Shown here in pieces: positions 8,334-26,936 of a stretch of 64,000 nt of DNA. Source of the DNA: Hyphomicrobium sp. CS1GBMeth3 (lineage in GTDB: Bacteria; Pseudomonadota; Alphaproteobacteria; Rhizobiales; Hyphomicrobiaceae); the NCBI RefSeq assembly GCF_900117455.1, contig NZ_FPHO01000003.1:62001-126000 (forward strand), in the 5' to 3' direction. Position numbers and translations under genes: made by a program. The first letter of the stretch is position 1, and every line of letters starts with the position of its first letter. A model generated the notes under the pieces. The model was not told the DNA's origin. It made no database searches and saw nothing but the letters and a program-made list of their open reading frames with translations.

Positions 8334-8355
8334 TCAACCCAATAAACAATGCACG

Positions 8356-9264: not shown

Positions 9265-9297
9265 AACAGGATTAACGCGGCAACAGGATTAACGCGG
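9264..9297. repeat. 17-bp tandem direct repeat (two copies)
   Basis: CAACAGGATTAACGCGG occurs twice in perfect tandem (9264-9280 and 9281-9297), directly upstream of the murQ palindromic operator and at the start of the divergent kinase gene. It could be a second regulator site or a simple duplication. Confidence 0.75.
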
Positions 9298-9303
9298 CAA
9301 GGC

Positions 9304-9339
9304 GTTTGCTCTATATAGTTTGCTCTATATAGAGCAAAC
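9304..9339. promoter_or_regulatory. Palindromic operator between nag genes and murQ
   Basis: The half-site GTTTGCTCTATATAG occurs at 9304-9318 and again at 9318-9332. The second copy is the left arm of a perfect 22-bp palindrome (9318-9339) centred on TATA. The palindrome ends 2 bp before the murQ ATG, leaving no room for a normal Shine-Dalgarno sequence. TATATAG could also serve as a -10 element. This looks like the binding site of a dimeric repressor; GntR (NagQ-like) or LacI (NagR-like) regulators control amino-sugar genes in other Proteobacteria. No regulator gene is in the neighbourhood. Confidence 0.7.
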
Positions 9340-9341
9340 GC

Positions 9342-10253
9342 ATGGATACTGAACGTCCCAGCCCCCGCTACGCCGGCATCGACCTCTGGGAGCCGGCCGA
9401 CGTGCTCGACGCCATGATCGAGGGGCAGTTCGCAGCCGTCGCCGCCGTGCGCGCCGCGCGCCCGCAACTTGGGAAAGCCGCGCTCGCCATGGAAGGCCGG
9501 CTGCACGAACGCGGCCGGCTGATCTATGCCGGCGCCGGCACGTCGGGGCGTCTTGCCGTGCAGGACGGCGCCGAACTGATGCCGACCTTTTCCTGGCCGC
9601 GCGAACGCCTGTTGCTGCTGATCGCGGGCGGCCATGAAGCCATGATGCAGGCGGTGGAAGGCGCCGAGGACGAAATCGAACACGCGCGCGAGCTTGCCAC
9701 GCGCCACAATATCGGGCCCGACGACGTGCTGATCGCGGTAGCGGCCAGCGGCACCACCCCGTTCACGCTCGCCTGCCTGCGTGAGGCGAAACGCGCGGGC
9801 GCGCTCACCATCGGAATCGCCAACAATCGCGGGACGCCGATCCTCGAAGACAGCGACGCGCCGGTTTTGCTCGACACCGGACCTGAGCCGATCGCCGGCT
9901 CGACCCGGATGAATGCCGGCACCGCGCAGCGCATCGCGCTCAATCTGCTGTCCTCGTTGGTGATGATCCGGCTCGGCCACGTCTATCAGGGCCTGATGGT
10001 GGACGTGCAGGCGACCAACGCCAAGCTTGTGCAGCGCGCGGAAGAGATGTTGCTGCGTCTCACGAGCCGCAGCCGCGACGAGGTGCGCAACGCGCTCATC
10101 CGCGCGCAGGGCAGCGTGAAGCTCGCCGTGCTGCTGCTGGAAGGCTGCGAGTTGCAGGACGCGCGCAATTTCCTCGATCGCTGCGGCGGCAAGCTGCGCG
10201 AGGCGCTCGCGCTTTACCGCGATCAGCCCAAGCGGCCGGGCCGCGCCGCCTAG
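9342..10253 (+). CDS. murQ: N-acetylmuramic acid 6-phosphate etherase
   Basis: MurQ cleaves the D-lactyl ether of MurNAc-6-phosphate, giving GlcNAc-6-phosphate and lactate, and so feeds the NagA reaction encoded divergently. The 303 aa protein has a SIS fold with the family signatures LIYAGAGTSGRLAVQDGAEL, IAGGHEAMMQAVEGAED (catalytic Glu region), AVAASGTTPFT and AGSTRMNAGTAQRIALNLLS. Length is normal. The start ATG directly follows the palindromic operator, so the transcript may have a very short or no leader. AnmK or a MurNAc kinase is not in the window, so the source of MurNAc-6P is unknown here. Confidence 0.95.
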   Translation: MDTERPSPRYAGIDLWEPADVLDAMIEGQFAAVAAVRAARPQLGKAALAMEGRLHERGRLIYAGAGTSGRLAVQDGAELMPTFSWPRERLLLLIAGGHEAMMQAVEGAEDEIEHARELATRHNIGPDDVLIAVAASGTTPFTLACLREAKRAGALTIGIANNRGTPILEDSDAPVLLDTGPEPIAGSTRMNAGTAQRIALNLLSSLVMIRLGHVYQGLMVDVQATNAKLVQRAEEMLLRLTSRSRDEVRNALIRAQGSVKLAVLLLEGCELQDARNFLDRCGGKLREALALYRDQPKRPGRAA

Positions 10254-10693: not shown

Positions 10694-11815
10694 TCAGATC
10701 GGATAGCGCAGCGTTGCGGCCAGCGCCGCGTTGTCGGGAATGTCCGCCCGGCGGACTCCCAAAAAGCGCGCGCCTGCCAGAATGGCTCTCCCGGCGATCT
10801 CGTCGACGACATCGTAGGTGCTGGCGTCCGCATCGGCCGCGAAGGTTACGGCACCGTTGGTGTCGCCTACCGTTCCGGGTGTGATCTGATCGATGTCGAC
10901 CATCAAGAGCTCGATCGCCCCGTTCGTGGCCGCCCGTGCGGCCTCGCCAATATCGGTCGTCGCGCGGCGGTCGCCCGAACGGGCTCCATACAGCGCCTTG
11001 GCGCCATCGATCTGCGCTTTGTAGTGGGCATCAAGGATCGGGCGCGCCGCGCTCGCAAGTTCCGCATCGGTGAGGCGGTCGGGGCTGTCTGAGATGGCCT
11101 CACGCAAAATCCCAGGATAGCTGTTCAGGTTGCGGAAGATCGGTCCCAGGGGTTCTGTCGCAGCAAGTATCAGCGGTGTATCGCGGCCTGACAGGACGCC
11201 GCGTAGGGCCGCGTCCACCTTACGGGCATACTGGCGGAGAAGGACCGTTTGCCCTTCGGCGTTGGCTATTCGCGTGTTCTGCGTAAGGTTGTTTACCGAC
11301 GCGCGGCGCACGGCATCGGAAGCACTTTTGGGCAGGTCCTGCACACGCACATTCGATGGCGGAAAATCCGGAAAGATCTCAATCAGGCGCACCGCGTTTT
11401 CAGATAACGCAAGGACAAAGGCCGTTTGTGGGAACGCGATGGCCCGCAGCAGTGGCTTCAAATGGAAGCGGTCGGATACCTGGACCGTGTCCGTCATCGC
11501 GGTCGCCAGCCTGAATGTACGCACGCTATCCGGGGTCGCAAGAACGGCCAGGCTGTGGGCCTGTAGCCTCCAGAAATCTTCATCTTCGGCCAAAGCGGTG
11601 AGCTCCGCTTCAAGCAGAGCGCGGCGACGCTTGTCGAACCCGGCCGTCACAAGCTGCTCTGAAGCCGACTTGACCATGTTGCCGAACGCAATGCGGCTGG
11701 CGGAGACGTGCTGGGTCTGGGGCGTCGTAGATACGTAGATCGACACGCAGGCATCTGCGCGCGTTGAAATCAGCGCCTTGAGTTCCGGAAGTGTCGGGAT
11801 ATCTACGTACAGCAT
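10694..11815 (-). CDS. Bacterial archaeo-eukaryotic release-factor-like protein (baeRF family 11)
   Basis: A 373 aa cytoplasmic protein starting MLYVDIPTLPELKALI (ATG at 11815; a TTG codon precedes it). N-terminal SIYVSTTPQTQ, a middle region with ALSENAVRLIEI, and a C-terminal AATEPLGPIFRNL then ELLMVDIDQITPG match the layout of bacterial eRF1/Dom34/pelota-like proteins, most like baeRF family 11. Archaeal and eukaryotic relatives act at the ribosomal A site in release or rescue; the bacterial families are thought to act in ribosome hibernation or stress, but this one is not characterised. A decayed universal-stress-protein fragment lies just upstream, which fits a stress gene neighbourhood. 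Confidence 0.75.
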   Translation of the reverse strand: MLYVDIPTLPELKALISTRADACVSIYVSTTPQTQHVSASRIAFGNMVKSASEQLVTAGFDKRRRALLEAELTALAEDEDFWRLQAHSLAVLATPDSVRTFRLATAMTDTVQVSDRFHLKPLLRAIAFPQTAFVLALSENAVRLIEIFPDFPPSNVRVQDLPKSASDAVRRASVNNLTQNTRIANAEGQTVLLRQYARKVDAALRGVLSGRDTPLILAATEPLGPIFRNLNSYPGILREAISDSPDRLTDAELASAARPILDAHYKAQIDGAKALYGARSGDRRATTDIGEAARAATNGAIELLMVDIDQITPGTVGDTNGAVTFAADADASTYDVVDEIAGRAILAGARFLGVRRADIPDNAALAATLRYPI

Positions 11816-11906
11816 CAATACATTGCTCCTGCTGTCTGATGTAAGGCGATGGTGATCAATTGGGACGTAAACCTTCTCGGCGTCAAGCGCTGTTCAGGAG
11901 CGCTTT

Positions 11907-14685: not shown

Positions 14686-15918
14686 CTACTCTGCCGCCAG
14701 CTTGACGTAGGCGCCATTCGGGACCGGGCAGGCCGCCCAAAGCTCGCCGAGCGCATCGATCAGGGTCGCCATCTGCTCGTCCGAATGCACCGGAGATGGC
14801 GTCAGGCGCATGCGCTCGGTTCCCTTCGGCACGGTCGGATAATTGATGGGCTGCACATAGATCCCGTATCGGCTGAGCAGCGTGTCCGTCACCGCCTTGC
14901 AGTGAATGGGACAACCGACCATCACGGGAACGATATGGCTTTGGTTATCCATAATGGGCAAACGCCTCTCCTTGAGGGACTTCTTGAGTGCGCGAGCCCG
15001 CTCCTGATGGCGGGCGCGCTCGAGCGAGCTGACTTTGAGATGTCGGATGCTCGCAAGCGCACCTGCCGCAATCGCAGGCGCAAGGGACGTGGTGAAGATG
15101 AAGCCCGACGCGTAGGAGCGGATCGCGTCGCAAAGGTCGCGCGTGCCGGCGATGTAGCCGCCCATGACGCCGAAGCCCTTCGCCAGCGTGCCGTTGATGA
15201 TGTCGACGCGACCCATGACACCGTCGCGCTCGGCGATGCCGCCCCCGCGCGGGCCGTACATGCCGACCGCATGCACCTCATCGAGATAGGTCAGCGCCCC
15301 GTACTTCTCGGCAAGATCGCAGATCGCCGAGATGGGCGCGATGTGCCCGTCCATCGAGTACACGCTCTCGAACGCGATGATCTTCGGCGCGTCGCGCGGC
15401 ACCTGCTTCAGCTTCGCTTCGAGGTCGGCAACATCGTTGTGGCGGAAGATGCGCTTCTCGGAGCCGCCGTGACGGATGCCCTGGATCATCGAAGCGTGAT
15501 TCTTCTCGTCGGAGAAGATCACGCAGCCGGGCAGCAGCTTCGCAAGCGTAGAGAGCGTCGCATCGTTGGCGACGTAGGCCGAGGTGAAGAGCAGCGCCTG
15601 CTCCTTGCCGTGCAGATCCGCGAGCTCATGCTCGAGCTCCACGTGATGATGCGTCGTGCCGGAAATATTGCGCGTGCCACCCGAGCCCGCACCCACCAAG
15701 TCGATGGCCTCGTGCATGGCGGCGATAACCTTGGGATGCTGTCCCATGCCGAGGTAGTCGTTGGAGCACCACACGGTGACTTCGCGCGAACCCATGGCGG
15801 TGAAATGATCCGCCACCGGAAAAAACCCGCGGCGGCGTTTGAGATCCGCAAAAGTGCGGTATCGACCTTCGCGACGAAGAGCCTCGAGCCGCTGCTGAAG
15901 CAAGCGCTCAAAATTCAT
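14686..15918 (-). CDS. hemA: 5-aminolevulinate synthase
   Basis: This PLP enzyme condenses glycine and succinyl-CoA to 5-aminolevulinate, the first step of haem synthesis by the C4 (Shemin) pathway used by alphaproteobacteria. Landmarks are [20 protein letters not shown] at the start, [40 protein letters not shown] (cofactor-binding Asp/His) and [11 protein letters not shown] (PLP lysine). Length is 410 aa, normal. The start at 15918 has GGAGG upstream. It is the last gene of a leftward set comprising the pentaheme cytochrome, a porin-like protein, a small exported protein and a CcmI-like protein, with gaps of at most about 60 bp. Haem-precursor supply is therefore probably co-transcribed with a haem-rich system. 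Confidence 0.95.
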
Positions 15919-15958
15919 GCCGGCCTCCTGCACATCATTCCAATACAAATGCGAACAA

Positions 15959-16846
15959 TCATTCGGCCTTCAGACCTAGCTCAAGAGCCGCAGCCATGAT
16001 CCGGCCAGATGAGGCGGAATCGTCCTTGAAGACTTCAAGCGCCTTGCGTAAGGCGGTCGCCGCGACGTCCATCTCGCCGAGCACGACACGGGATCGCATA
16101 AGGCGAGTCCACCCCGCCACGTCTCGCGGAGAGCTCTCGAGGCGATACGCCAGGCCATCGACCATCGACCGGATTGCGGCGTCACGCTCGTGCGCAGGTC
16201 CCTCCTCGGAGCTGATGGCTTTCTTCGCAACCGCACCGGTCTGCAAAGGCGCGGCTATTCCCGATCTGGCGGCTTCGGAGACCCTCGCCTTCGCTTCCTC
16301 GTATGCGAGCTTGAGCTCGGCGGAACTCGGATCAAGCTCCACTGCCCTCGCGTAGGCAACGGCTGCCTCTTGATAGCGCTCCATATTGAAATAGGACCAG
16401 CCGAGCATGCGCCAGCCCTGGACGTCCTGCGGCGCGTCTTCAAGACGCGCTGCCAGCCGCCCGATCATCGTATTCACATCCGGCAGCAGGTTCTCGTCCG
16501 CCGCAGCCACAACGGCTGGTTTCTCTGTCTCGATGGAACGCGCGTAGTTTTCGAGGTTTGCCAGCAACGCGCTGTCGGTATCCTCCATGTCTGTCGTCTG
16601 CTGAGCATTACGCAGATAGGACATGGCCGCGCCAACGCCTGCAAAGAGAAGAAAGAGAGCGGCGGCAGCGATCATCAATCCCGCACTGCCTCGAAGATCC
16701 CGGCCGCCCCCCGAACGCTGTGACCGCAGCCGAGAGAAAATAAGGTGAGAGCCGACAGGGCTCCTTGAGAGCACCTGAAAACTGTGCATCGCGGCTATGA
16801 CGATTGACGCGGCAATGAGAAGCAAGCCAAGAAGCGTCAGCGACAT
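15959..16846 (-). CDS. CcmI/CycH-like TPR membrane protein
   Basis: A protein of about 295 aa starting [16 protein letters not shown]. It has two transmembrane segments (about residues 2-22 and 58-80) followed by a periplasmic region with two TPR-type blocks: [29 protein letters not shown] and, further on, [24 protein letters not shown]. Both blocks are the style of CcmI/CycH, which presents apocytochrome c to the haem ligation machinery. It sits in the multiheme cytochrome operon between the small exported protein and hemA. It overlaps the gene upstream by a few bases. A dedicated maturation factor for the multiheme proteins is the likely role; the rest of the ccm genes are not in this window. 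Confidence 0.75.
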
Positions 16847-17232
16847 CTGCAAGCTCCCTTCTGACGGCGGGATGCTACAGGGCTATTGCCAGATTTGACG
16901 ACGCATCTCCGGTTGCTACCTGAGCATCGGTTGCGGGATTTCGGATAGTAATAGACGTAGCCGCCTATATGCGTGGGGTAGTGGCCGCGGCTGTAGTAAT
17001 AGGGATAGTCGTAGTAGATGTAGCTCGGACCTACGGGAAGGTAGATCCGTGTTTTTCGAGCGCGCCGTTGAACGCGGCGTTTGCTTTCCAGCACGTAGGT
17101 TCTGGCGCTTTCGCGCGACTTCTGCGCAGCCTGCTTGGACGACTTGGCCTCGGCCACCGGCGCAACGCAAAAAATGCCGAACACCAGCAAGCCTCTCATC
17201 AGGCTAGAAGCGAACCAATTCCGACTACTCAT
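16837..17232 (-). CDS. Small Tyr-rich exported protein in the cytochrome operon
   Basis: About 131 aa. The start at 17232 (MSSRNWFASSLMRG) has GAGG six bases upstream; another start at 17256 overlaps the stop of the porin-like gene (TGATG). A signal peptide ends near PVAEA. The mature part has a strongly basic helix-like segment (KSSKQAAQKSRESARTYVLE, then KRRVQRRARK), then a Tyr-rich stretch, PSYIYYDYPYYYSRGHY. Four cysteines lie near the C-terminus (RNRCSGSNRRCVV and GACRCR). I do not recognise the family. Aromatic and basic content suggests a surface- or protein-binding accessory, which is inference. Confidence 0.65.
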   Translation of the reverse strand: MSSRNWFASSLMRGLLVFGIFCVAPVAEAKSSKQAAQKSRESARTYVLESKRRVQRRARKTRIYLPVGPSYIYYDYPYYYSRGHYPTHIGGYVYYYPKSRNRCSGSNRRCVVKSGNSPVASRRQKGACRCR

Positions 17233-17255
17233 GAGAGACCTCACATAGCCGATCA

Positions 17256-18893
17256 TCAGAATTTCCTGCGGAGCTCGGTGCGAATGCCGAAGTTGTCTTC
17301 GTCACCATCCTCGAGGATCTGGTAGGTGGCATCGGCGCGGAACAGCCAGGCCCGATCGATCGGGACCTGATAGCGAATACCGAAGGCATACTGCGCCTCC
17401 TGCGCACCTATGCCGTCCTTCTCGAAGGGCTGCACGGTGGCAACCTCGAAGACGAGTTGCTGATCGAGATCGAAGAGATACTGCAAGCCGATCGCGCCGC
17501 CGAAGGCGTCGGAGCCGGTGTCGTCGAGCTTCGGGTAGCCGGTCAGGGCATCTGTCTCGAAGTTGATGCCGACGTTCTTCAGAATGCCCGCGCCGTTGCC
17601 ATCCACCAGGGGCTGAGGGTTACCGGCGCCGATAAAAAAGTTGGCGTAGGGGAGCAGCGTGCTCGGTAGGCCCGTGATCAGGCTATTCTCCGAAATGACG
17701 GCAACGCCATCGCTCTCACCGTTGGGAGCTTCTCCAAAGTTCGCGAACACGCGGGTAGAGTTCGACACGGTGTTGTAATAGCGGCGCGTGTAAGCGCCGG
17801 TCAGGAAGTGCGTGAGAAGGCCATCCTGCTCGTCGCGCCCCTCAATCATGCCGTAGCCTGCTTCGATATAGCCGTCGAAGGCGTCGACGAAGGCAGTGAC
17901 ACCATAGAGGTTGGCATTGTCATCCTGGCCCGCCCCGATGAGGCCCGCATTGTCGACATCGTCGAACGCGGCGAAGAAGGTGATGTCGAAGTTGGCCAGG
18001 CCAAGCGCCGCAGAGTTCTTCGCCGGCAGGCTCACCGCGCCACCCAGGATCGCATCGTTCGCCCAGATGCCGTTCTGCAGAAACAGGGGGAAGAGACCGA
18101 CGGTAAAGGGCAGATCAAAACTGGCTTCCTGACCGGAGAAACCCGAATAGATGGAGCCGAAATCGCCCTCGAAGAACAGCGTTTGCGGGTCAAGATCGAA
18201 CTCGCCGTTGAACTTGTCGTTGGCACCGCCGCCACCAAACTCGTAGCGCGTGAATTTTACGGCGCCGTCCTGAAGCGGCGTGAAGAAGGCGTGAAGCCGT
18301 TCGGTTCCCGTGATCTTGAAATCGACATCGAGATTCAACCGGGTCGCGATCTGGGCAATGTCCTTGCCGTTGTTATTGTTGTAGGCGACCGCCGTCCGCC
18401 AATCGCCGTAGATGGAGAGGCCCGGAAGCAGTGGGTTCTTTTCACCCAGGAAGGTGCTGCTCTCGTCGTATATGCCCGAGGTGTATTGCTGGCGGCCGAT
18501 CTCCAACAGCGGGCGCGGCGGCTCGACCGCGGCCTTCGAGCCGTAGATATCGACCTGCTCCTGCGCATCGTAATCTTTTTCGTACTGTGGATCCGGCAGG
18601 AAAAGGTCGTCCTTGGCGGTACTGCGCTTGTCTGCCTTGGCGTCCGCAGCATCGTTTTTGGAGGGCGCACCCACATACTGTGGAACGGCGTACCGAGGAC
18701 CGGTATTGGGCGCGCCAGGATCGGGCGGAGACGCTTCGCGCGACACTTCCGTCACCCAGCTTCCCGCATAGGTCTCTTCGCTATTTTCGCCTGCAGCTGG
18801 CCCTGCAGTCACTCCGGACATCACGAGGCCACCGCCGGAAAACAGCGCGAGAATAGCGGTCGTTGTTTTGGCACGGTACGCATTACAAACCAT
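17256..18893 (-). CDS. Outer-membrane beta-barrel (porin-like) protein of the cytochrome locus
   Basis: 545 aa with a signal peptide (about residues 1-36) and an acidic, probably disordered N-terminal region to about residue 120. A long stretch of alternating hydrophobic/polar segments typical of beta strands and tight turns follows (for example GDWRTAVAYNNNNGKD, LVFEVATVQPF). It ends with a terminal Phe (RTELRRKF), the usual outer-membrane insertion signal. There are no CXXCH motifs. It is not clearly a member of the classical alphaproteobacterial porin family, and its size allows roughly 16-22 strands. It follows the pentaheme cytochrome gene by 57 bp. A barrel housing or contacting a cytochrome is inferred from context. 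Confidence 0.75.
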   Translation of the reverse strand: MVCNAYRAKTTTAILALFSGGGLVMSGVTAGPAAGENSEETYAGSWVTEVSREASPPDPGAPNTGPRYAVPQYVGAPSKNDAADAKADKRSTAKDDLFLPDPQYEKDYDAQEQVDIYGSKAAVEPPRPLLEIGRQQYTSGIYDESSTFLGEKNPLLPGLSIYGDWRTAVAYNNNNGKDIAQIATRLNLDVDFKITGTERLHAFFTPLQDGAVKFTRYEFGGGGANDKFNGEFDLDPQTLFFEGDFGSIYSGFSGQEASFDLPFTVGLFPLFLQNGIWANDAILGGAVSLPAKNSAALGLANFDITFFAAFDDVDNAGLIGAGQDDNANLYGVTAFVDAFDGYIEAGYGMIEGRDEQDGLLTHFLTGAYTRRYYNTVSNSTRVFANFGEAPNGESDGVAVISENSLITGLPSTLLPYANFFIGAGNPQPLVDGNGAGILKNVGINFETDALTGYPKLDDTGSDAFGGAIGLQYLFDLDQQLVFEVATVQPFEKDGIGAQEAQYAFGIRYQVPIDRAWLFRADATYQILEDGDEDNFGIRTELRRKF

Positions 18894-18950
18894 AGGGACT
18901 CCACGTCGTGGCTCTGACCGGAAACGGAAAGGGTTGGTCAGATTTCCGTG

Positions 18951-20846
18951 CTAGCCCTTCACGTCGACATCCACCGCGAAGGAGTGGAAGTTCACGATCC
19001 GCTCGTTCATGCTCTGCTCCATTGCCTTGGTGGAACCGACAAAGCGCATGAAGTAGATGGGCTCGGCTCGGCTCCGCATACGGAACGCTAGGCGGTATTT
19101 CCCTGACTTCGTGATCAGGTTGCCCGGCACCTTGTATTCAGCTTGCTTCTTGCCGAGCGGCGCCAACGACCGGTTCTCCATCCGCACAAGCGGTGGGTGG
19201 TTGAGAACAGTCGTCGGAACGCCCGGCGGACGCAGATGCGGCAGCGGATCGACGTCGAAGTTCACCGGCAGGTACATCTCGCGCTCGGTTCCCTTGACGT
19301 TGGTCGTCAGGAACTTGGTCTGGAAGTGCACCAACTGCTGGTCTGTCTTGATGCGCCCGGCAGCGACGTCCAGGCTGTGCAGATCGGCGATGTCGCCGTT
19401 GCTGTCGACGTAACCCGACTCCCAGACATTCTTGCCATCCGGATCGACCAGGGCGACGTTCACCCAGAGCTGAGGCTGCGCTCCGAGCGATCCAGACGGA
19501 AGGTTGTGTCCCGTGTTGGCGTTCTTGATCGTGTAGGAGAATGCCAGATCCGCGCCGACCTTCGGCGTGCCCACGATGTGGGGACCGTCGATGTGGCTGC
19601 TGTTCTCCATGACCTGCTTTCGCAACTCGTCCCGCTCGTCGAGCTTCTTGATATTCTCGTCTATGATCTGCCTAGCCTCTTCACGGTCGAGCGCGTCGGC
19701 CCAACGCTTGGGAAAGGCGACCTTGACCTTGCCGTCTGCGACCTTGTCCTCGAACTTGGTCGTGCCCCAGCCCGCGCGCCAATCGAACTCCAGCCAATCC
19801 TTGACGCTAAAGGCCTGCGCCTTCGTGTTGTGCGGGAATACGCCTGGGTGAGCGATCGAGTAGCCCGGGCCGACGAAACGGTGATTGGCGTGCTTGCGCC
19901 CCGGGTTGACCTCCTTACCGCCGACAATGGCGGAGGGCGCCGTCGCATAGCCGGATGGCTTCCCGGGGACCTTGCCCATATGGCAATCCTGGCACGAGAC
20001 GCCAGCCTTGCGCGCCGGACTGTCGCGATACTGATCCCAGACGATCTCGAGCTTGATACCAAGATTGACCGCTACCTGATGGCAGCTGACGCAGAACTCC
20101 GACTTGGTGATCTGGTCGTTGGTGACCATACCCTCGTGGATGTCGTTGCCGCGCCCATCGGTACTGGTTTTGACGGAGTAGGTCTCTTTGTTGGCGAGAA
20201 CGTCTTTGATGACGCTCTTTTCGCCGCTGCCGTAGACCGGCTCGTGGATCTTCCCCGGCTCGACCCTGCGTTCACCATTGACCTTGCCATACTGCTCTTT
20301 GACACGATGGCAGGTGATGCAGCTCACGCCCTCGCGTGAGATCTGACTGCGCGCCCAGAGTGGAGTTTCGCGCGACTCGCCGAGTTGCGTCCCGACCTGC
20401 TGATGGCATCGCACACAGAAAGTGCCGACTGTGCCTTGCGTCAGCTCCTGAAACTTCTGCTCGAACTTGTGGAACATCGGCGAGATCGACGCATAGGCAT
20501 GCTGCGACGACGACCACTCCTCGTAGATCTGCTTATGGCACTCACCGCATTGCGCAGCAGTGGGATAGAGGGAGAGCGTCTCATCGTCGACCGCGTGAAC
20601 CGGCGCATTGCTGCTGTTTGCGCCCTCGCCGCCTTGAACGTTCGGCTTGGCGTCCACGCCGTCGGCTTTATCGCCCGCTCGCTTATCCTTTTGATCATAC
20701 ACTCCTACTTTTGAGGGTTGCACCGTCGTGCTCCAGGCACCTCCGCTGGAGCCTGAGATCGCATTCTGACTGAGGAAGGCTGCGTTGATCAGAATCGAAC
20801 TCACGAAAACACACGAACGCAACAAAATACCGGACAATGGTTTCAT
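18951..20846 (-). CDS. Pentaheme c-type cytochrome, c554/HAO-like, with C-terminal beta domain
   Basis: 631 aa with a hydrophobic export signal (about residues 8-30) and five CXXCH haem sites with Cys at about residues 100 (CGECH), 144 (CVRCH), 176 (CITCH), 252 (CVSCH) and 285 (CQDCH). AAQCGECHKQIYEEW and the spacing resemble cytochrome c554/hydroxylamine-oxidoreductase-like multiheme proteins. The region after about residue 440 (NTGHNLPSGSLGAQPQLWV) is a haem-free beta-rich domain seen in related multiheme cytochromes. It is not NrfA: no CXXCK site is present. It heads the leftward operon with the barrel protein, CcmI-like protein and hemA. Periplasmic or outer-membrane-associated electron transfer is likely; the substrate is unknown. 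Confidence 0.88.
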   Translation of the reverse strand: MKPLSGILLRSCVFVSSILINAAFLSQNAISGSSGGAWSTTVQPSKVGVYDQKDKRAGDKADGVDAKPNVQGGEGANSSNAPVHAVDDETLSLYPTAAQCGECHKQIYEEWSSSQHAYASISPMFHKFEQKFQELTQGTVGTFCVRCHQQVGTQLGESRETPLWARSQISREGVSCITCHRVKEQYGKVNGERRVEPGKIHEPVYGSGEKSVIKDVLANKETYSVKTSTDGRGNDIHEGMVTNDQITKSEFCVSCHQVAVNLGIKLEIVWDQYRDSPARKAGVSCQDCHMGKVPGKPSGYATAPSAIVGGKEVNPGRKHANHRFVGPGYSIAHPGVFPHNTKAQAFSVKDWLEFDWRAGWGTTKFEDKVADGKVKVAFPKRWADALDREEARQIIDENIKKLDERDELRKQVMENSSHIDGPHIVGTPKVGADLAFSYTIKNANTGHNLPSGSLGAQPQLWVNVALVDPDGKNVWESGYVDSNGDIADLHSLDVAAGRIKTDQQLVHFQTKFLTTNVKGTEREMYLPVNFDVDPLPHLRPPGVPTTVLNHPPLVRMENRSLAPLGKKQAEYKVPGNLITKSGKYRLAFRMRSRAEPIYFMRFVGSTKAMEQSMNERIVNFHSFAVDVDVKG

Positions 20847-21493
20847 CGCCCCACGCTCACACGAAATTTAAAGATGACGTCCCGATTCACTTCGCTAACG
20901 CGAGAACGGCGCCCGACCGCCGCTCGGGAATTCTGATGGGATAATTAATTAACAAAAAATTGGCCGCGATAAGGCGGAAACACGAAAAAGAGGAATGAGA
21001 TGTTTTTTCAGCTCCAGGTGACAAATTTTAGAGAGCTCGCCATTGCCAACTCCCCGTGAGCCCCGGGCGGAAATTTTGAAAATGAGGATATTCTACCTAC
21101 ACGCTGAAAAATATAAGCTATCTATCTTCCGATCCGCCCTTCACCTGGGGATCAAAACGGCTCGTTACACCGCGCCATCGGGGGAGCATCAGCACACGTT
21201 TCGATCCCGCATACCTGCCCTCCGCAGACTGAGCGGAATAATTCGCAGGCTCGTTCCGTTGTCATAGGTTTTGACCGAGGGCGCACGCTAGGTTGAGCCC
21301 GCATTTCCCTCCCGAATTTTTCGCCTCGCATTTCTTGAAAAGTCGCACCGGATAACGCACTTAGCGACACTCGCGGTTTACGGCCATCAAACGGCCATTG
21401 TCAGAGCACGATAGTGAGTTAAATCGTTTTTGGATAATTCAGGCGTGTATTGAAATCCGTGGATAGGCATTTGTAGTCCACTGCGACAGGTCA
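20847..21493. promoter_or_regulatory. 647-bp divergent control region of the multiheme locus
   Basis: This region separates the two divergent cytochrome operons and is clearly more AT-rich than its surroundings, for example ATAATTAATTAACAAAAAAT near 20941. It has a direct repeat ACGGCCAT (near 21379 and 21390). An imperfect dyad lies near 21234-21247. Both operon promoters should lie here. I could not fix -35/-10 elements or match a known regulator site. A 74-codon frame inside it has no support as a gene. Confidence 0.5.
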
Positions 21494-22576
21494 ATGGCGA
21501 AACGTCACCGAATAACATTCAATGGCCAAGTCTTCCTGGCACGGCGCGGCGAGTTGCTTCTGGACGCCGCTCTGAACAACGGCATCGACTTCCCGCACGA
21601 TTGCCGCGCCGGGCACTGTGGCGCGTGCTGCGTGCGTTTGATATCCGGTGAAGTTCAGGGTGGTGAAGGATCCGAGCCAGGCGTCGTGCATGCGTGTCAG
21701 TGCCGGATCGTCGCAGACGCCGCGATCGAGCCGCGTCGGGCGGCGCACATTCGCTCCATTGATGGCGTCCTCGATTCATTGCGCTCGCTGTCAAACGAGG
21801 TGATGGAAGTCGGCATCAGAACGGACCGCGCCCTGCCCTACCATGCGGGGCAATATGTCCAGCTTCGCTTCAACGGCTATCCGAGCCGCCCTTTCAGCAT
21901 CACCCATCCGTTGTACGACGAGCCGAACAGAAGCTCGGTCTGGTTCCATATGCGACGCACGAAAGGCGGGCGAGTAACCTCATCGCTCGGCAAGCGGATC
22001 AGGCTGGGCCATCACGTGCAGCTGACGGGACCTTATGGCGCAGCCCACTTCCGTCCCAACGTGGACGGCCGGCTCGTTCTCGTGGCAACCAACACGGGCT
22101 TTGCGCCGATATGGTCGATAGCCGTAGCTGCGCTGCGCGAGAATCCAGACCGCAACATCATGATCATAGCCGGCGGCCGCACCCTCGAGTCGCTCTACAT
22201 GGGACCAGCTCTCGTGCGGCTCGCGAGCTTTCCCAATGTTCTCGTCGTGCCTGTCTGCAGCACACCGCAGACCAGGTTCACAGCCGTGCACCCGGGCCGG
22301 CCGACCGACTATCTGCCTCGTTTACATGAAACCGATGTGCTCTACGCCTGTGGCGCGCCGGGAATGGTCGAGTCCGTCAAATCGATCGCGGCACGCAACG
22401 GCGTAGTCTGCTACGCGGATCCATTCATTGCGACCATCAGCGACAAGGGAAAGCGAAGCGTCCTGAACCGGGCGATGCAGTGGCTCGCGCCCGATCCCCG
22501 TCGCGGGCGGCAGGAGCCGTCGTTGGAAACGCAAGGGTTGGCTGAAGCAAGGGTGAGTAACCATTCCCGTCGTTAG
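21494..22576 (+). CDS. Ferredoxin/FAD/NAD(P)H reductase (2Fe-2S plus FNR domains)
   Basis: 360 aa. The N-terminal plant-type [2Fe-2S] domain has Cys at about 37, 42 and 45 (DCRAGHCGACC) and a fourth in HACQC near residue 68. A ferredoxin-reductase domain follows: SRPFSITHP is the flavin-binding RxxS region and VATNTGFAPIWS the NAD(P)-binding glycine-type loop. Such proteins pass electrons from NAD(P)H through FAD to the iron-sulfur cluster, usually in oxygenase systems. No oxygenase is nearby; the next genes encode multiheme c and b cytochromes. No signal peptide is seen, so it is cytosolic. The stop lies one base before the next start, indicating an operon. Confidence 0.9.
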   Translation: MAKRHRITFNGQVFLARRGELLLDAALNNGIDFPHDCRAGHCGACCVRLISGEVQGGEGSEPGVVHACQCRIVADAAIEPRRAAHIRSIDGVLDSLRSLSNEVMEVGIRTDRALPYHAGQYVQLRFNGYPSRPFSITHPLYDEPNRSSVWFHMRRTKGGRVTSSLGKRIRLGHHVQLTGPYGAAHFRPNVDGRLVLVATNTGFAPIWSIAVAALRENPDRNIMIIAGGRTLESLYMGPALVRLASFPNVLVVPVCSTPQTRFTAVHPGRPTDYLPRLHETDVLYACGAPGMVESVKSIAARNGVVCYADPFIATISDKGKRSVLNRAMQWLAPDPRRGRQEPSLETQGLAEARVSNHSRR

Positions 22577-22577
22577 A

Positions 22578-23609
22578 GTGCAGCGTTCTCGGCTTATCGG
22601 GTTCGGGCGGCAGCAGTCCCTCTGCGTGTTCGGCTTGCTGCTTATCCTCGGCGGCGGCGCGGACAACGCCACCGCGTCGGATACCGCCAAGATCATGGGG
22701 CCGAATGCCTGCGCCGAATGCCACAAGCAGGAGACCGAGGCCTGGAAGAGCACCCATCATTTCAAGACGTACCGTGCGATGCCGCGCGACGCCAAAGCGA
22801 ACGAAATCGCCAAAAAGATGGGCGTGCGGCGCATCAAGTCGGAAAGTTTATGCGTGAATTGCCATTTCACGCTGCAGAACAAGAACAACAAGGAGCAGTT
22901 CGTCGCCGGCGTCTCCTGCGAATCCTGCCACGGCGCCGGACAGGATTGGATCAAGGTTCACAGCGAGTTCAGCGGCAAGACCATACTCTTCGAGACCAAG
23001 GCCGAGGCGCAGGCGCGTTGGAAGCTTGCCGACGCCAAGGGGATGATCAGGCCGCGCGCCTTCTACCAGCTGGCGAAGAACTGCTACGGCTGCCACGTCG
23101 TACCGCAAGAGGATCTCGTGAACAAAGGCGGCCATCGCGCGGGCAGCGATTTCGAGCTCGTCTCGTGGTCGCAGGGTGAGGTGCTGCATAACACTTGGCA
23201 CTCCAAGGGCAGAGCCAATGTGCCCGCCAGCGCGGCACGCAGGCGGATGCTCTATCTCGTCGGTCTGGGCGTCGACCTCGAGACCGCCATACGCGGCATC
23301 GGCCGTGCGAAGACCAGATGGCTTTATGCCTTTGAGATGGCCAAACGCGCCGACCGTGCACGCAAGCAACTTGCCGCCGTGGCGAAAGCGGCGCCGGACG
23401 TGCCGGAGATCGCAGAGATAGTCAAATACGCCCACGCGGCCGGGCTGAAGCTGAACAATGAGCGCGCGCTTACAGCCGCGGCCGACGGCATCTCCAAACA
23501 GCTCATTGCCATCACCGAGAAGTATGACGGCAGCACCTTGGCGAGGCTCGACCCGCTAATTCCGGGACCGGAAAAATACAAGGGCGTGGCGAGGAAACCG
23601 GACAACTGA
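22578..23609 (+). CDS. Tetraheme cytochrome c554-like protein
   Basis: 343 aa starting with GTG. A signal peptide covers about residues 1-34. Four CXXCH sites lie at Cys 45 (CAECH), 92 (CVNCH), 114 (CESCH) and 169 (CYGCH). PNACAECHKQETEAWKSTHH and SCESCHGAGQDWIKVH are typical of the cytochrome c554 family. The C-terminal third is haem-free and helical (many Ala/Lys). It is a periplasmic electron carrier in the operon with the FNR-like reductase (1 bp upstream) and the b-type membrane cytochrome (73 bp downstream). In nitrifiers c554 takes electrons from hydroxylamine oxidoreductase, but no such enzyme is encoded here. Confidence 0.9.
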   Translation: MQRSRLIGFGRQQSLCVFGLLLILGGGADNATASDTAKIMGPNACAECHKQETEAWKSTHHFKTYRAMPRDAKANEIAKKMGVRRIKSESLCVNCHFTLQNKNNKEQFVAGVSCESCHGAGQDWIKVHSEFSGKTILFETKAEAQARWKLADAKGMIRPRAFYQLAKNCYGCHVVPQEDLVNKGGHRAGSDFELVSWSQGEVLHNTWHSKGRANVPASAARRRMLYLVGLGVDLETAIRGIGRAKTRWLYAFEMAKRADRARKQLAAVAKAAPDVPEIAEIVKYAHAAGLKLNNERALTAAADGISKQLIAITEKYDGSTLARLDPLIPGPEKYKGVARKPDN

Positions 23610-23682
23610 GCGGGCAAGCGACGACGACAGTCTAAATCGGCTATCGGGGAAGCCATCGCGATGGGTATTTCGGGAGATTTCC

Positions 23683-24597
23683 GTGAAGTCGGTCGGGCAG
23701 CGCGCTTCGAACGGTTTGATCAGTGGACGCGATCCGTCCTCTGCAGGATATCTCATCCGCCACACGGTTCACGCCCTGTCGATCGCAATCATGTCCGGCG
23801 GTCTGTTCTGGCTCGTCTGGATCTACGGTAACGGGCTGCGCGATGCACGCTATCTCGATGGCTGGATCCTCGCGGGCGGCATGGGCTTGCAGCTCTACTT
23901 CCACATCGCCATCAAGTCAGCCAGGATGTCGCCGAAATCAGCCACGCGCTGGCGGAAAACACATATTTTTCTCGGATATGTGCTGATCGCCGCCTTCGTC
24001 TCCCATTCGGATTTCTCGCTCCCCGATACCGGCTTCGAGTGGGCGTTGTGGGCGAGCTTTGTCCTGGTGACGCTGAGCGGCATCTTCGGCGCCTATCTCT
24101 CCTGGTCGCTGAAGGCCAAGCGGCGGATCGACGAAGGCCTCAACCACGATCGCATCCCCGCCCTTCGCGCCGAGCTGGCACGGGATATCCACGCCGCAGT
24201 CGTCGAGATCGATCCAGCCGTCGATCAGATCGCTTTACCGGGACTGCCGGCGCTGCCCCATGACGCCTGGATCATGGACCTCTATATCGCTGACCTGCGC
24301 GATTATTTTCAGAGGCCCCGCAATTTCGCCGCCCATCTCATCGGATCGCAACGCCCCCTCAAGCGGCTGACAGACGAGATCGATCATCTGTCACGCTATG
24401 TCGACCAGCAGGGCCAGGAGAAGCTAATCACCATCAGGAACCTGGTGATCGAGAAAGACCGGCTCGATTTCGCGCACGTCTATCTAGGGCTCAACAAGGC
24501 CTGGCTGTTCGTGCACGTGCCTGTCACCTACGCGCTGGTCGCGATGACGGTTCTGCACGTCCTCGTCGTCTATGCCTTTTCATCGGGGGCCTGGTGA
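23683..24597 (+). CDS. Integral membrane b-type cytochrome-like protein
   Basis: 304 aa starting with GTG after GGGAG. Five hydrophobic segments appear at about 31-51, 59-78, 93-111, 123-144 and 270-298, with a long hydrophilic segment between the fourth and fifth. Histidines in or near helices (HTVHALSI, LQLYFHIAI, KTHIFLG, FVSHSDF, LFVHVPVTY, MTVLHVLVV) are placed as in di-haem cytochrome b561/ferric-reductase-like proteins. I cannot name the exact family. Its place between the c554-like gene and the decaheme gene suggests a quinone- or ferredoxin-linked step across the inner membrane. Its stop overlaps the next start. Confidence 0.75.
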   Translation: MKSVGQRASNGLISGRDPSSAGYLIRHTVHALSIAIMSGGLFWLVWIYGNGLRDARYLDGWILAGGMGLQLYFHIAIKSARMSPKSATRWRKTHIFLGYVLIAAFVSHSDFSLPDTGFEWALWASFVLVTLSGIFGAYLSWSLKAKRRIDEGLNHDRIPALRAELARDIHAAVVEIDPAVDQIALPGLPALPHDAWIMDLYIADLRDYFQRPRNFAAHLIGSQRPLKRLTDEIDHLSRYVDQQGQEKLITIRNLVIEKDRLDFAHVYLGLNKAWLFVHVPVTYALVAMTVLHVLVVYAFSSGAW

Positions 24598-26936
24598 TGA
24601 GACCGCTAGGATTACGGCGCGACCGTATCGCAGCGATGCTAGCGTTTAGCACCGTTGTCTGCCTGGGCGCGGCTTTGTTTCTCTCTAAAGGCACGGAGTT
24701 TCTGATGCCCGGGCCGCTCGCGAGCGCGCACGGAGCGATCGAGAATTGTAGTGCCTGCCACACTAAGAGCGGCAGCGGCAAATTGAGCTGGATTCACGGT
24801 CTCGCCCCCGGCGATCCGCTCGCCGACAGCAAAGCCTGTCTCACGTGCCACAAAATGCCAGACACGGCCTTTAATGCGCACGGCACGTCGGCAGCGGCTC
24901 TGACCCAGAGCACGAACCGGCTAACAAAGATTTCCCGGGAGATACCCCAGCCGCAATCGGCCCGTGCGCAGAGCGTGGCCTTTCCGACGCACGACATGGT
25001 CTCAGGCGGGCTCGCGTGTGCGACCTGCCATCAGGAGCATCAGGGCGCAAATTTCAAACTCAACGAGATCACCAACGAGCAATGCCGCTCTTGCCACGTC
25101 ATGAAGTTCGACAGCTTCGACGGCAACCACCCAAAGTTCGATAATTACCCGTTCAAGCAGCGCACGCGGATCGTCTATGACCACGCCGGTCACTTCGGCA
25201 AGCACTACCCGGAGGTGGCGAAGAAGGATCCGGCGAAGCGCATCCCAGAAACCTGCTCGACATGCCACACCAGCAGCCTCGACAAACGGATCATGGCTGT
25301 CACCTCGTTCGACAAGACGTGCGCCACCTGCCACCTCGGCCAGATCGTGGGCAAGGAGCGGGCCACCGGCCCGAAAGGAATTGCGTTCCTGTCCCTGCCC
25401 GGGCTCGACCTCGAAACGCTGAAGAAGAAGAATGCCGCGATCGGCGAATGGCCAGAGGAGTCCGAGGCCGAGCTTACGCCCTTCATGAAGGTGATGATCG
25501 GCCGCAACACTCAAGGGCGCGCTCTGATCAAGGCCGTCGACAAGCTGAACCTGCAGGATCTGGCCAAAGCAAGCGACGATCAGATCACCGCGGTGACAAA
25601 TCTAGCATGGGAGATCAAGCGGCTCTTTCATGCACTGATCTCCGGGAAAGCATCGGACGTTCTGGGCGACCTCAATATTGTCAGCGGCGCGAAGCTGAGC
25701 ACGAGCCTCGTTGCCGACCTCACGGCCAACATTCCGCGCGACGTGATCATCAGCGCGCATCAACAGTGGCTACCCAATCTCGCAAAGGAAATCACCAATG
25801 GCCCGATCACAACGGACAAGAAGCCCGTCGCCGATGAACAGGACCAAGGCGGTTCGCCCCCTGCACGCGTGGAGGCGACCGTGGCCGGACCGGACTCGGC
25901 CGAGGAGCCGCCCGATGCGGATGCGCCCGAGGAATCCCAGACGCAGGACCAGCAAGCTTCAGCGAGCGACGACGCAACAAGCGTTGTCAAACGCGATCCG
26001 CTCCCTTGCCTCGTGCACCTGTTCGGCCAGTGTCTGATGTATAAGGAAGCGGCGCAACCAGCCCCGCCCGCAGCCGCGCCGTCCGCCAGCGCGCTGCCCG
26101 AACCGATGAGAGCAGGCCTCAAGGGCACCGAGGCGCTGGAAGTGGCAGAAGCATCGTCTGAAAAGCCACCGGCCAAGGCAGGAGAACAGTCCGACGATCT
26201 GCTCTTTCCCACGCAGGAAGAGCTTCGCGCGATGAAAGATCGCAACCAGGGCGGCCCCAAAACAGCCGATCCATCTTCTGGCGCCGCCTCGACACCGGCC
26301 GACGCTCCGGCGGCGTCGAGCGCTCCAGCCGAAAAGGTTCAACCGGCGGCCGCGCCCGTGATCACTATCGGCAGCGACGTGGACCCTGAAAGCTGGGCCG
26401 AGTACGGCGGCTGGTACCGGCAAGATTATGCGATCTACTACCGTCCGACGGGACATAAGGACAAATTCATCTACAGCTGGCTCTTTCTGACTGGTCCCCA
26501 GGCACCAAAAGGCGCCACCAGTCCGGTAGCAGCGGTCTTTGACTATCTCACGAGCAAGGACGCCCAGGGCTCATGCACCAAATGCCACAGCGTTGATGAC
26601 ATCCAAGGCAAGGGCCGCGTCGTCAATTTTTCCCCGCTCTCGATCGAGAGCAAGAAAGGACGCTTCACGCGTTTCATTCATGAGCCGCATTTCGGCATCA
26701 TGGATGATCGCGGATGTCTGACCTGCCATAAGCTCGAAAAGGGCCGGCCCTATCTGAAGTGTTATGAGCAGGGCGACCCGCAGCGTTCTGCGTCGAATTT
26801 CGGCGCAGTGGGAAAGGATCTCTGCCAGACCTGCCACAGCGTCAACAAGGCGCGTCAGGACTGTCTCCTATGCCACAACTACCATGTGGACGGCGTGGTC
26901 ACGCCGATCATGAAAACGAAACTCCCAACACAATAG
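24594..26936 (+). CDS. Membrane-anchored decaheme c-type cytochrome
   Basis: 780 aa. One N-terminal hydrophobic segment (about 13-31) is an anchor or uncleaved signal. Ten CXXCH sites form two clusters: Cys 52, 82, 142, 164, 221 and 243, then 661, 708, 744 and 757. Between them lie a helical region (about 275-400) and a long Pro/Ala/Glu/Asp-rich linker (about 405-600) that is probably disordered. The C-terminal domain begins near ESWAEYGGWYRQDYAIYY. Cytochrome-c3-like spacing is visible in both clusters. It starts at GTG 24594 or ATG 24597 (TGATG overlap). The two haem modules joined by a flexible linker could bridge the periplasm; that is inference. Confidence 0.9.
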   Translation: MMRPLGLRRDRIAAMLAFSTVVCLGAALFLSKGTEFLMPGPLASAHGAIENCSACHTKSGSGKLSWIHGLAPGDPLADSKACLTCHKMPDTAFNAHGTSAAALTQSTNRLTKISREIPQPQSARAQSVAFPTHDMVSGGLACATCHQEHQGANFKLNEITNEQCRSCHVMKFDSFDGNHPKFDNYPFKQRTRIVYDHAGHFGKHYPEVAKKDPAKRIPETCSTCHTSSLDKRIMAVTSFDKTCATCHLGQIVGKERATGPKGIAFLSLPGLDLETLKKKNAAIGEWPEESEAELTPFMKVMIGRNTQGRALIKAVDKLNLQDLAKASDDQITAVTNLAWEIKRLFHALISGKASDVLGDLNIVSGAKLSTSLVADLTANIPRDVIISAHQQWLPNLAKEITNGPITTDKKPVADEQDQGGSPPARVEATVAGPDSAEEPPDADAPEESQTQDQQASASDDATSVVKRDPLPCLVHLFGQCLMYKEAAQPAPPAAAPSASALPEPMRAGLKGTEALEVAEASSEKPPAKAGEQSDDLLFPTQEELRAMKDRNQGGPKTADPSSGAASTPADAPAASSAPAEKVQPAAAPVITIGSDVDPESWAEYGGWYRQDYAIYYRPTGHKDKFIYSWLFLTGPQAPKGATSPVAAVFDYLTSKDAQGSCTKCHSVDDIQGKGRVVNFSPLSIESKKGRFTRFIHEPHFGIMDDRGCLTCHKLEKGRPYLKCYEQGDPQRSASNFGAVGKDLCQTCHSVNKARQDCLLCHNYHVDGVVTPIMKTKLPTQ

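What the first reader, a model, noticed from the sequence alone, without database searches (positions are those of the whole stretch)
14686..26936. Divergent multiheme cytochrome / outer-membrane barrel locus, possible new electron conduit
Two divergent operons carry 19 CXXCH haem sites (5+4+10). Leftward: pentaheme cytochrome, outer-membrane barrel, small Tyr-rich exported protein, CcmI-like protein, hemA. Rightward: 2Fe-2S/FAD/NAD(P)H reductase, c554-like tetraheme, b-type membrane cytochrome, decaheme protein. In cell order this could carry electrons from NAD(P)H through the inner membrane and periplasm to the outer membrane, or the reverse. MtrABC, PioABC, MtoAB, Nrf and HAO systems have other gene sets; none pairs an oxygenase-type reductase with these cytochromes as far as I know. 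Seen: motifs, gene order. Inferred: a joint electron path.
Basis: partly seen in the sequence, partly recalled or inferred. Interest (0 to 1): 0.92.

Follow-up and report, generated by a model that had tools for sequence, protein, structure and literature searches.

The report
Cytochrome-and-porin gene cluster, PCC4 type
This Hyphomicrobium locus encodes a chain of haem proteins that probably carries electrons between NAD(P)H in the cell and the outer membrane; it is real and conserved, but it matches a gene cluster already described in 2017, whose function nobody has tested as far as I could find.

The parts
14686..15948 (-). hemA, 5-aminolevulinate synthase, one of two ALAS genes of the genome; variable neighbour
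   Evidence: TIGR01821 669 bits; two loci over the cut-off in the genome
15959..16852 (-). CcmI/CycH-like TPR protein with two N-terminal membrane segments; variable neighbour
   Evidence: PF23914 67.9 bits; hydropathy; tblastn match in 28 of 40 type-I loci
16837..17256 (-). small exported Tyr-rich protein (10.8% Tyr), function unknown; few relatives
   Evidence: no Pfam/NCBIfam match; composition; 7 of 40 type-I loci
17256..18893 (-). outer-membrane beta-barrel with OprD/MOMP-like fold in the model, C-terminal Phe
18951..20846 (-). exported pentaheme cytochrome with C-terminal Ig-like domain, fold of T. tepidum pentaheme c552
21384..21414 (+). conserved element of the divergent intergenic region (consensus CCATCAAANNGNCATTGTCTGACCATNATGG), regulatory role inferred
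21494..22576 (+). cytoplasmic 2Fe-2S / FAD / NAD(P)H reductase (Fer2 at the N-terminus)
   Evidence: PF00111, PF00970, PF00175; conserved Cys 37, 42, 45 and 68 or 70
22578..23609 (+). exported tetraheme cytochrome, c554-like
   Evidence: PF13435 6.7e-18; 1bvb 8.4e-9; 4 CXXCH
23683..24597 (+). inner-membrane di-haem b cytochrome, the conserved inner-membrane protein of PCC4
   Evidence: W90-H94-H108, S132-G133-G136, W274-H278-H292 in the window sequence; conservation of the four His
24594..26936 (+). inner-membrane-anchored periplasmic decaheme cytochrome
   Evidence: 10 CXXCH; anchor residues 12-30, 11 further conserved His

Best explanation
The locus is a PCC4 Subgroup I cluster: an electron route across the whole envelope. 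Proposed path: NAD(P)H -> FAD -> 2Fe-2S in the cytoplasmic reductase -> two haems b of the membrane cytochrome -> inner-membrane-anchored decaheme -> soluble tetraheme -> pentaheme at the inner face of the outer membrane -> acceptor outside the cell or inside the barrel. I favour the outward (reductive) direction, because an NAD(P)H-type reductase is kept in both subgroups although its kind was exchanged. The second hemA and the CcmI-like gene would supply haem and help maturation. Shown: genes, motifs, synteny, co-occurrence and predicted folds. Inferred: every electron step, the docking of the pentaheme on the barrel, the direction and the acceptor.
For: Core genes kept together and co-occurring. 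Four-His b cytochrome. Enough conserved extra His for bis-His ligation of all haems: 11 for 10 in the decaheme, 7 for 5 in the pentaheme and 4 invariant for 4 in the tetraheme (His 61, 128, 186, 204; 11 sequences), which fits electron transfer rather than catalysis. Penta and barrel adjacent on one strand in 50 of 56 loci holding both. A reductase of either type in 69 of 80 loci. In L105 a 4Fe-4S protein is fused to the b cytochrome (858 aa, four cluster motifs), which puts a cytoplasmic electron entry or exit on this protein. [quoted passage not shown]
Against: I found no biochemical or genetic test of a PCC4 (searches; the listings were capped). He et al. drew the opposite direction, from an extracellular donor to the quinone pool. 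A barrel of this size is narrow for a five-haem protein and no extracellular cytochrome is encoded here, so how electrons pass the outer membrane is unexplained. Eleven of 80 loci show no reductase; nine are cut on one side, but L068 and L087 extend on both sides and still show none. In Geobacter, deleting extHIJKL alone hardly changed Fe(III) or Mn(IV) oxide reduction (95.8% and 97.9% of wild type) and lowered Fe(III) citrate reduction to 66%. The models are of middling confidence (pLDDT 72 and 69).
Confidence: 0.5

Rival explanations
1. Inward route (model of He et al. 2017): electrons from Fe(II), Mn(II) or another outside donor pass barrel, pentaheme, tetraheme and decaheme to the b cytochrome and the quinone pool; the reductase would make NAD(P)H by reverse flow (the last point is mine).
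For: PCC4 was found in four marine Zetaproteobacteria iron oxidisers, in a Hyphomicrobium draft genome from a pyrite-oxidising enrichment and in four draft genomes from a drinking-water filter (PMC5566968 section 16). Half of a related cluster lies in MAG MnTg02 (L024/L068) of a ferromanganese crust (PMC6839870 passages).
Against: From established energetics, NAD+ reduction by Fe(II) or Mn(II) through a transmembrane b cytochrome is uphill and runs against the membrane potential; a reductase is kept in both subgroups. Many carriers belong to genera of heterotrophic methylotrophs (recalled, not tested).
Confidence: 0.28
2. No conduit: the OprD-like barrel lets a soluble substrate (for example an oxyanion such as selenite or tellurite, or a metal chelate) into the periplasm, where the NAD(P)H-driven cytochromes reduce it.
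For: The barrel fold is that of substrate-specific porins. Geobacter ExtI, a porin encoded beside the pentaheme ExtKL, is implicated in selenite and tellurite reduction and appeared unimportant for Fe(III) reduction (PMC5877670, passages).
Against: All pentaheme haems could be bis-His ligated, so no open catalytic haem is evident. The selenocysteine of MccSep, a cytochrome selenoprotein that I take for an ExtKL relative, aligns with Ser here. ExtHIJKL as the only cluster supports metal-oxide reduction. Homology of this barrel with ExtI was not tested: no Geobacter sequence was fetched.
Confidence: 0.17
3. Two unrelated operons that happen to be neighbours.
For: Subgroup II loci have other orders, and in L031 the pentaheme match lies about 5 kb beyond the decaheme gene.
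Against: Presence and absence agree in all but one of 60 genomes, an 83% complete one, if weak matches are left out; divergent order in 36 of 37 type-I loci; linkage also in loci with quite different order.
Confidence: 0.03

Closest known systems
PCC4 Subgroup I (He et al. 2017, PMC5566968)
   Same: Porin, three multiheme cytochromes with 4, 5 and 10 sites, conserved inner-membrane protein with SGXXG and two WX3HX13H, redox gene upstream of the tetraheme, its own gene orientation, no pfam13247 gene, Hyphomicrobium.
   Different: Nothing essential that I could test. He et al. drew electron flow inward to quinone and called Subgroup I exclusive to Hyphomicrobium; I also see type-I loci in records titled Rhodomicrobium (L031), Filomicrobium (L064) and Aestuariivirga (L047). 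hemA, CcmI-like and Tyr-rich neighbours are not mentioned in the sections I read; figures and supplements were not available.
PCC4 Subgroup II (Zeta-, Gamma-, other Alphaproteobacteria, Planctomycetes)
   Same: Same penta, barrel, tetra, b cytochrome and decaheme.
   Different: Has a cNMP-binding/4Fe-4S (PF00027 + PF13247) protein and a reductase with Fer2 at the C-terminus (L025); its decaheme carries a Cys-rich stretch before the anchor (9-10 Cys in the 5 loci read, 0-1 in the 3 type-I loci read; longest ORFs).
Geobacter extHIJKLMNOPQS
   Same: Porin, small protein, pentaheme, 10-haem and 4-haem cytochromes, cytochrome b and an Fe-S protein in one cluster (PMC5877670 passages); pentaheme of the same fold class according to PMC11976967.
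   Different: Also rhodanese and 12-haem protein, a Rieske protein instead of the reductase; ExtKL has a predicted selenocysteine. Homology of the other parts untested here.
Thermochromatium tepidum pentaheme c552 (5ze8)
   Same: Fold over 344 of 385 residues, five haems, Ig-like domain with an HxxPxG motif.
   Different: 16% identity; other organism; no paper on its role was found in the library.
MtrCAB / MtoAB / PioABC
   Same: General plan: porin plus periplasmic multiheme cytochrome.
   Different: Barrel of another fold and fewer strands; none of 51 barrel homologues matches the MtrB/PioB model; cytochromes far below the DmsE/MtrA cut-off.

Membership tests
PCC4 (He et al. 2017) | porin gene plus three MHCs with 4, 5 and 10 haem sites | tested here: met
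PCC4 (He et al. 2017) | inner-membrane protein with SGXXG and two WX3HX13H motifs | tested here: met
   W90/H94/H108, S132/G133/G136, W274/H278/H292; the second Trp is not conserved in all 11 sequences
PCC4 (He et al. 2017) | inner-membrane protein with five transmembrane helices | tested here: inconclusive
   a plain Kyte-Doolittle scan at 1.6 gave only about three clear segments; no topology predictor at hand
PCC4 Subgroup I | own gene orientation (divergent here), no pfam13247 Fe-S gene | tested here: met
   36 of 37 divergent and 0 of 40 with the Fe-S protein among type-I loci
PCC4 Subgroup I | redox gene upstream of the tetraheme with the domain order of Subgroup I | tested here: inconclusive
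   a Fer2/FAD/NAD reductase stands there and type II has the same domains in another order, but He et al.'s Supplementary Figure 4 with the architectures was not seen
PCC4 Subgroup I | carried by Hyphomicrobium | tested here: met
   G000 shares its genus with G005, whose contig of 643563 bases equals in length that of H. zavarzinii ATCC 27496
MtrAB/PioAB porin-cytochrome complex | DmsE/MtrA-family decaheme over the curated score | tested here: not met
   TIGR03508: penta 30.3, tetra 17.7, deca 17.7 bits against 192.2
MtrAB/PioAB porin-cytochrome complex | MtrB/PioB-family barrel | tested here: not met
   TIGR03509 is not among the families matched by the 51 barrels of A4 at E <= 1. The whole-genome search found none either, but nothing rang in its controls, so it shows nothing
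ExtKL (NF040886 equivalog) | score over 250 bits | tested here: not met
   34.1 bits. 45 of 45 members match weakly, but as many match the DmsE model, so the weak match does not discriminate
ExtKL | selenocysteine | tested here: not met
   Ser453 at the position of Sec325 of MccSep (that X is Sec is read from the U325A chain, and that MccSep is an ExtKL relative is my inference)
Pentaheme c552 fold | five-haem domain followed by Ig-like domain, colinear with 5ze8 | tested here: met
Archaeal extracellular cytochrome nanowires (AvECN) | polymerising subunits | not testable with these tools
   relation of c552/PHC to AvECN is from PMC11976967 passages; no AvECN chain among the rows shown
Cytochrome c554 of ammonia oxidisers (NF043010) | score over 400 bits | tested here: not met
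   tetraheme 50.8 bits; kinship only, 1bvb E 8.4e-9

The most novel reading that the evidence does not exclude
PCC4 and Geobacter extHIJKLMNOPQS are branches of one older class of envelope electron route, built on a c552/ExtKL-type pentaheme plus a small OprD-like porin instead of MtrAB, with interchangeable cytoplasmic entry modules (NqrF-like reductase plus a 4Fe-4S protein with cyclic-nucleotide-binding domains, or an oxygenase-type reductase). In methylotrophic Hyphomicrobium it would be an NAD(P)H-driven outward valve, possibly with the pentaheme polymerising outside the cell.
Probability: 0.2. Interest if true: 0.72.

Novelty: new member of a known kind. Interest (0 to 1): 0.45.

Why it matters
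PCC4 has stood as a putative system since 2017. Named carriers include H. zavarzinii ATCC 27496 (L027) and H. facile DSM 1565 (L059), so the idea can be tested in culture. If the NAD(P)H link holds, a direct NAD(P)H-to-outside route in methylotrophs would bear on metal cycling in soils, sediments and water filters, and the exchange of the cytoplasmic module between the subgroups would show how such routes are rewired.

Tried and rejected
PCC3 (PMC5566968), the Tenderia EET candidates (PMC5371394 passages) and Uet (PMC10734462 passages): rejected on gene content. Nrf, NapC and octaheme-type models: all scores far below cut-offs. Four b-cytochrome ORFs in the 80 named loci were long enough to look fused to the Fe-S protein; in three (L072, L091, L100) no cluster motif is in frame, only L105 is real. 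Operator patterns recalled from memory (FNR, NtrC, sigma-54, Irr, Fur, Crp, RegA, NnrR) were looked for on the given strand of 12 intergenic regions; only two loose NnrR-like hits came up, in L012 and L022. My notebook says "about 25 of 37" for the intergenic element; the count is 19 of 37 at 14 or more of 18 positions. ExtKL members were sought in 398 Pseudomonadota genomes: 0 over the curated score, 47 at E <= 1e-12, so no ExtI/ExtKL neighbourhood could be compared. Seven Pfam families matched single barrels (at most 3 of 51, best E 0.12). Eight flanking ORFs from five loci (L043, L085, L087, L096, L105) shared no Pfam family that would hint at a function. Paper searches: none, He et al. only, 20 of 43 listed, 12 of 76 listed, 8 of 31 listed. 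PMC10553843 (passages) mentions an ExtKL homologue highly expressed in sulfate reducers that live with ANME archaea; PMC13188914 (passage) lists ExtKL as a selenoprotein; PMC12307469 had none of the terms. The library holds open-licence PMC papers only; absence from it is not absence from print.
Full report
WHAT IS THERE. The pentaheme has 5, the tetraheme 4 and the decaheme 10 CXXCH sites; 300 shuffles of each protein give at most 0.013 on average and never more than 1, and no other stop-to-stop segment of the window has two or more sites. Leftward: pentaheme, barrel, small Tyr-rich exported protein, CcmI/CycH-like TPR protein, ALAS. Rightward: Fer2/FAD/NAD(P)H reductase, c554-like tetraheme, four-His membrane cytochrome, decaheme. 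The window lies in a 4.03 Mb genome of three contigs. It shares its genus with G005, whose 643563-base contig has the length of NZ_KB911258.1 of Hyphomicrobium zavarzinii ATCC 27496. The genome has two ALAS genes over the curated score, this one and C3:253577, four CcmH/CycH-TPR loci over the cut-off including this one, and cytochrome c554 domains (E <= 0.001) only in the two proteins of this locus.

CONSERVATION. Of 16 relatives' regions fetched, 11 hold pentaheme, barrel, reductase, tetraheme, b cytochrome and decaheme together; two others are contigs of about 5 kb and three are distant types. In 60 genomes (own included) the b cytochrome is found in 18, one of them a weak match with a stop inside; the pentaheme in 18, two of them weak (E about 1e-13). 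Of the 17 strong b-cytochrome genomes 16 have the strong pentaheme; the exception, G034, is 83% complete. None of the other 43 has a strong pentaheme. One complete genome of the same genus, G007, lacks both, so the locus is not universal in the genus.

A scan of named genomes gave 256 relatives of the tetraheme, of which the tool kept the best 80, so what follows is about those 80. Seventy-six have b cytochrome and decaheme. Forty carry the reductase type of the window (type I): none has the 4Fe-4S protein, and penta and reductase diverge in 36 of the 37 that show both. Twenty-nine carry a reductase with Fer2 at the C-terminus (type II), 27 of them with a cNMP-binding/4Fe-4S protein. Eleven show no reductase: nine are cut on one side of the cluster, L068 and L087 are not. 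Penta and barrel adjoin on one strand in 50 of 56 loci with both. Penta has five CXXCH in 47 of 48 complete ORFs and decaheme ten in 66 of 69. Type-I loci are mostly in records titled Hyphomicrobium, Hyphomicrobiaceae or Hyphomicrobiales/Rhizobiales, but also Rhodomicrobium (L031), Filomicrobium (L064) and Aestuariivirga (L047). In a sample of 398 Pseudomonadota the tetraheme is in 14 at E <= 1e-30.

THIS IS PCC4. He et al. 2017 (PMC5566968; I saw passages, abstract included, and read sections 16 and 17) described a putative PCC4: a porin, three periplasmic multiheme cytochromes with 4, 5 and 10 sites, a conserved inner-membrane protein with SGXXG and two WX3HX13H motifs, and other redox proteins. 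Subgroup I, in Hyphomicrobium, differs in gene directions, lacks the pfam13247 Fe-S gene that stands before the inner-membrane protein gene in Subgroup II, and has a redox gene upstream of the tetraheme made of the same domains in another order. Subgroup II is mostly marine. The window has W90/H94/H108, S132/G133/G136 and W274/H278/H292 in the membrane protein, no Fe-S gene, and a Fer2/FAD/NAD reductase in place; the type-II Fe-S protein matches PF13247 and PF00027 and the type-II reductase has FAD/NAD/Fer2. My simple hydropathy scan did not resolve five helices, and their supplementary domain figure was not available. So the finding is a further member of a described kind for which I found no experiment. 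One later mention that I saw, PMC13264449 (passages and section 18), cites PCC4 and reports ferredoxin-NADP reductase genes beside other porin-cytochrome clusters.

TOPOLOGY AND LIGANDS. The decaheme has a membrane anchor at residues 12-30 and its first haem near residue 52. In five loci with the Fe-S protein (L024, L025, L085, L096, L105) a stretch with 9-10 Cys precedes the anchor; in three type-I loci (window, L030, L059) there are 0-1 (longest ORFs taken). So between type II and type I the cNMP/4Fe-4S protein and the Cys-rich stretch are missing and the reductase is another one, while the periplasmic and outer-membrane parts stay. Which state is older was not tested. Conserved His beyond CXXCH number 11 in the decaheme and 7 in the pentaheme, and four are invariant in the tetraheme: enough for bis-His ligation throughout. 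In L105 (Oceanospirillum sediminis) the 4Fe-4S protein and b cytochrome are one ORF with four cluster motifs; three other apparent fusions are frame artefacts. He et al. note that the two are annotated as one gene in O. beijerinckii, but could be two.

MECHANISM. I propose NAD(P)H -> FAD -> 2Fe-2S -> haems b -> decaheme -> tetraheme -> pentaheme/barrel -> acceptor. The reductase has no signal peptide that I can see; the others are exported or membrane-bound. He et al. proposed flow inward to quinone. Two points favour outward flow: both subgroups keep an NAD(P)H-type reductase although its kind differs, and (from established energetics, not a call) electrons leaving NAD(P)H through a transmembrane b cytochrome fall in energy and follow the membrane potential, as in NADPH oxidases and ferric reductases, whereas inward flow to NAD+ must be driven. 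Neither point settles it. The barrel's OprD-like fold also allows that it admits a soluble substrate rather than holding a cytochrome.

REGULATION. The 647-base region between the operons holds CCATCAAACGGCCATTGTCAGAGCACGATAG (21384-21414). Its consensus, taken from 11 sequences, scores 14 or more of 18 in 19 of 37 loci, window included; 50 mononucleotide shuffles per locus never passed 13, except 15 in L056. The core was derived from some of these sequences and they are related, so this overstates significance; 18 of 37 loci do not show it at that level. It is locus-specific: in the own genome a looser pattern hits once, here; in 40 genomes a stricter one (one mismatch allowed) gives four hits, three at this locus, none for the reversed control, and none in the own genome. 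The binding protein is unknown.

VERDICT. Observation confirmed, joint path plausible, novelty claim not supported: PCC4 Subgroup I. What is added is the fold assignment of pentaheme and barrel, the differing cytoplasmic modules, the second ALAS, the wider range of type I, the intergenic element and two culturable strains for tests.

Noticed in passing
window 21384-21414: Conserved, locus-specific dyad-like element between the divergent operons; possible operator or promoter of a dedicated regulator.
   Followed up: partly
L025 6062-7855 and L024 8535-10841 (minus): Subgroup II protein joining cyclic-nucleotide-binding domains with 4Fe-4S clusters (Pfam run on the L025 protein): an electron carrier that might be gated by a second messenger.
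   Followed up: partly
L105 11003-13579: Fusion of the 4Fe-4S protein with the b cytochrome in Oceanospirillum sediminis.
   Followed up: yes
G007: A complete genome of the same genus lacks both halves of the locus, so it could serve as a natural negative control.
   Followed up: no
L024 / L068: Right half of a Subgroup II-like cluster in MAG MnTg02 from a ferromanganese crust, without a reductase in the fetched stretch; a pentaheme match of the same genome lies on another contig (G036:C251).
   Followed up: partly
L111: A second copy (one mismatch) of the intergenic element in G006, outside this locus (G006:C161:14415); its neighbours were not looked at.
   Followed up: no
window 10697-11818 (minus): Protein of the bacterial archaeo-eukaryotic release factor group (baeRF families 11 and 8).
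   Followed up: no
window 7299-10253: SIS-domain, BadF/BadG-type kinase and GKRP-like SIS genes, perhaps an amino-sugar salvage set (for the last two).
   Followed up: no
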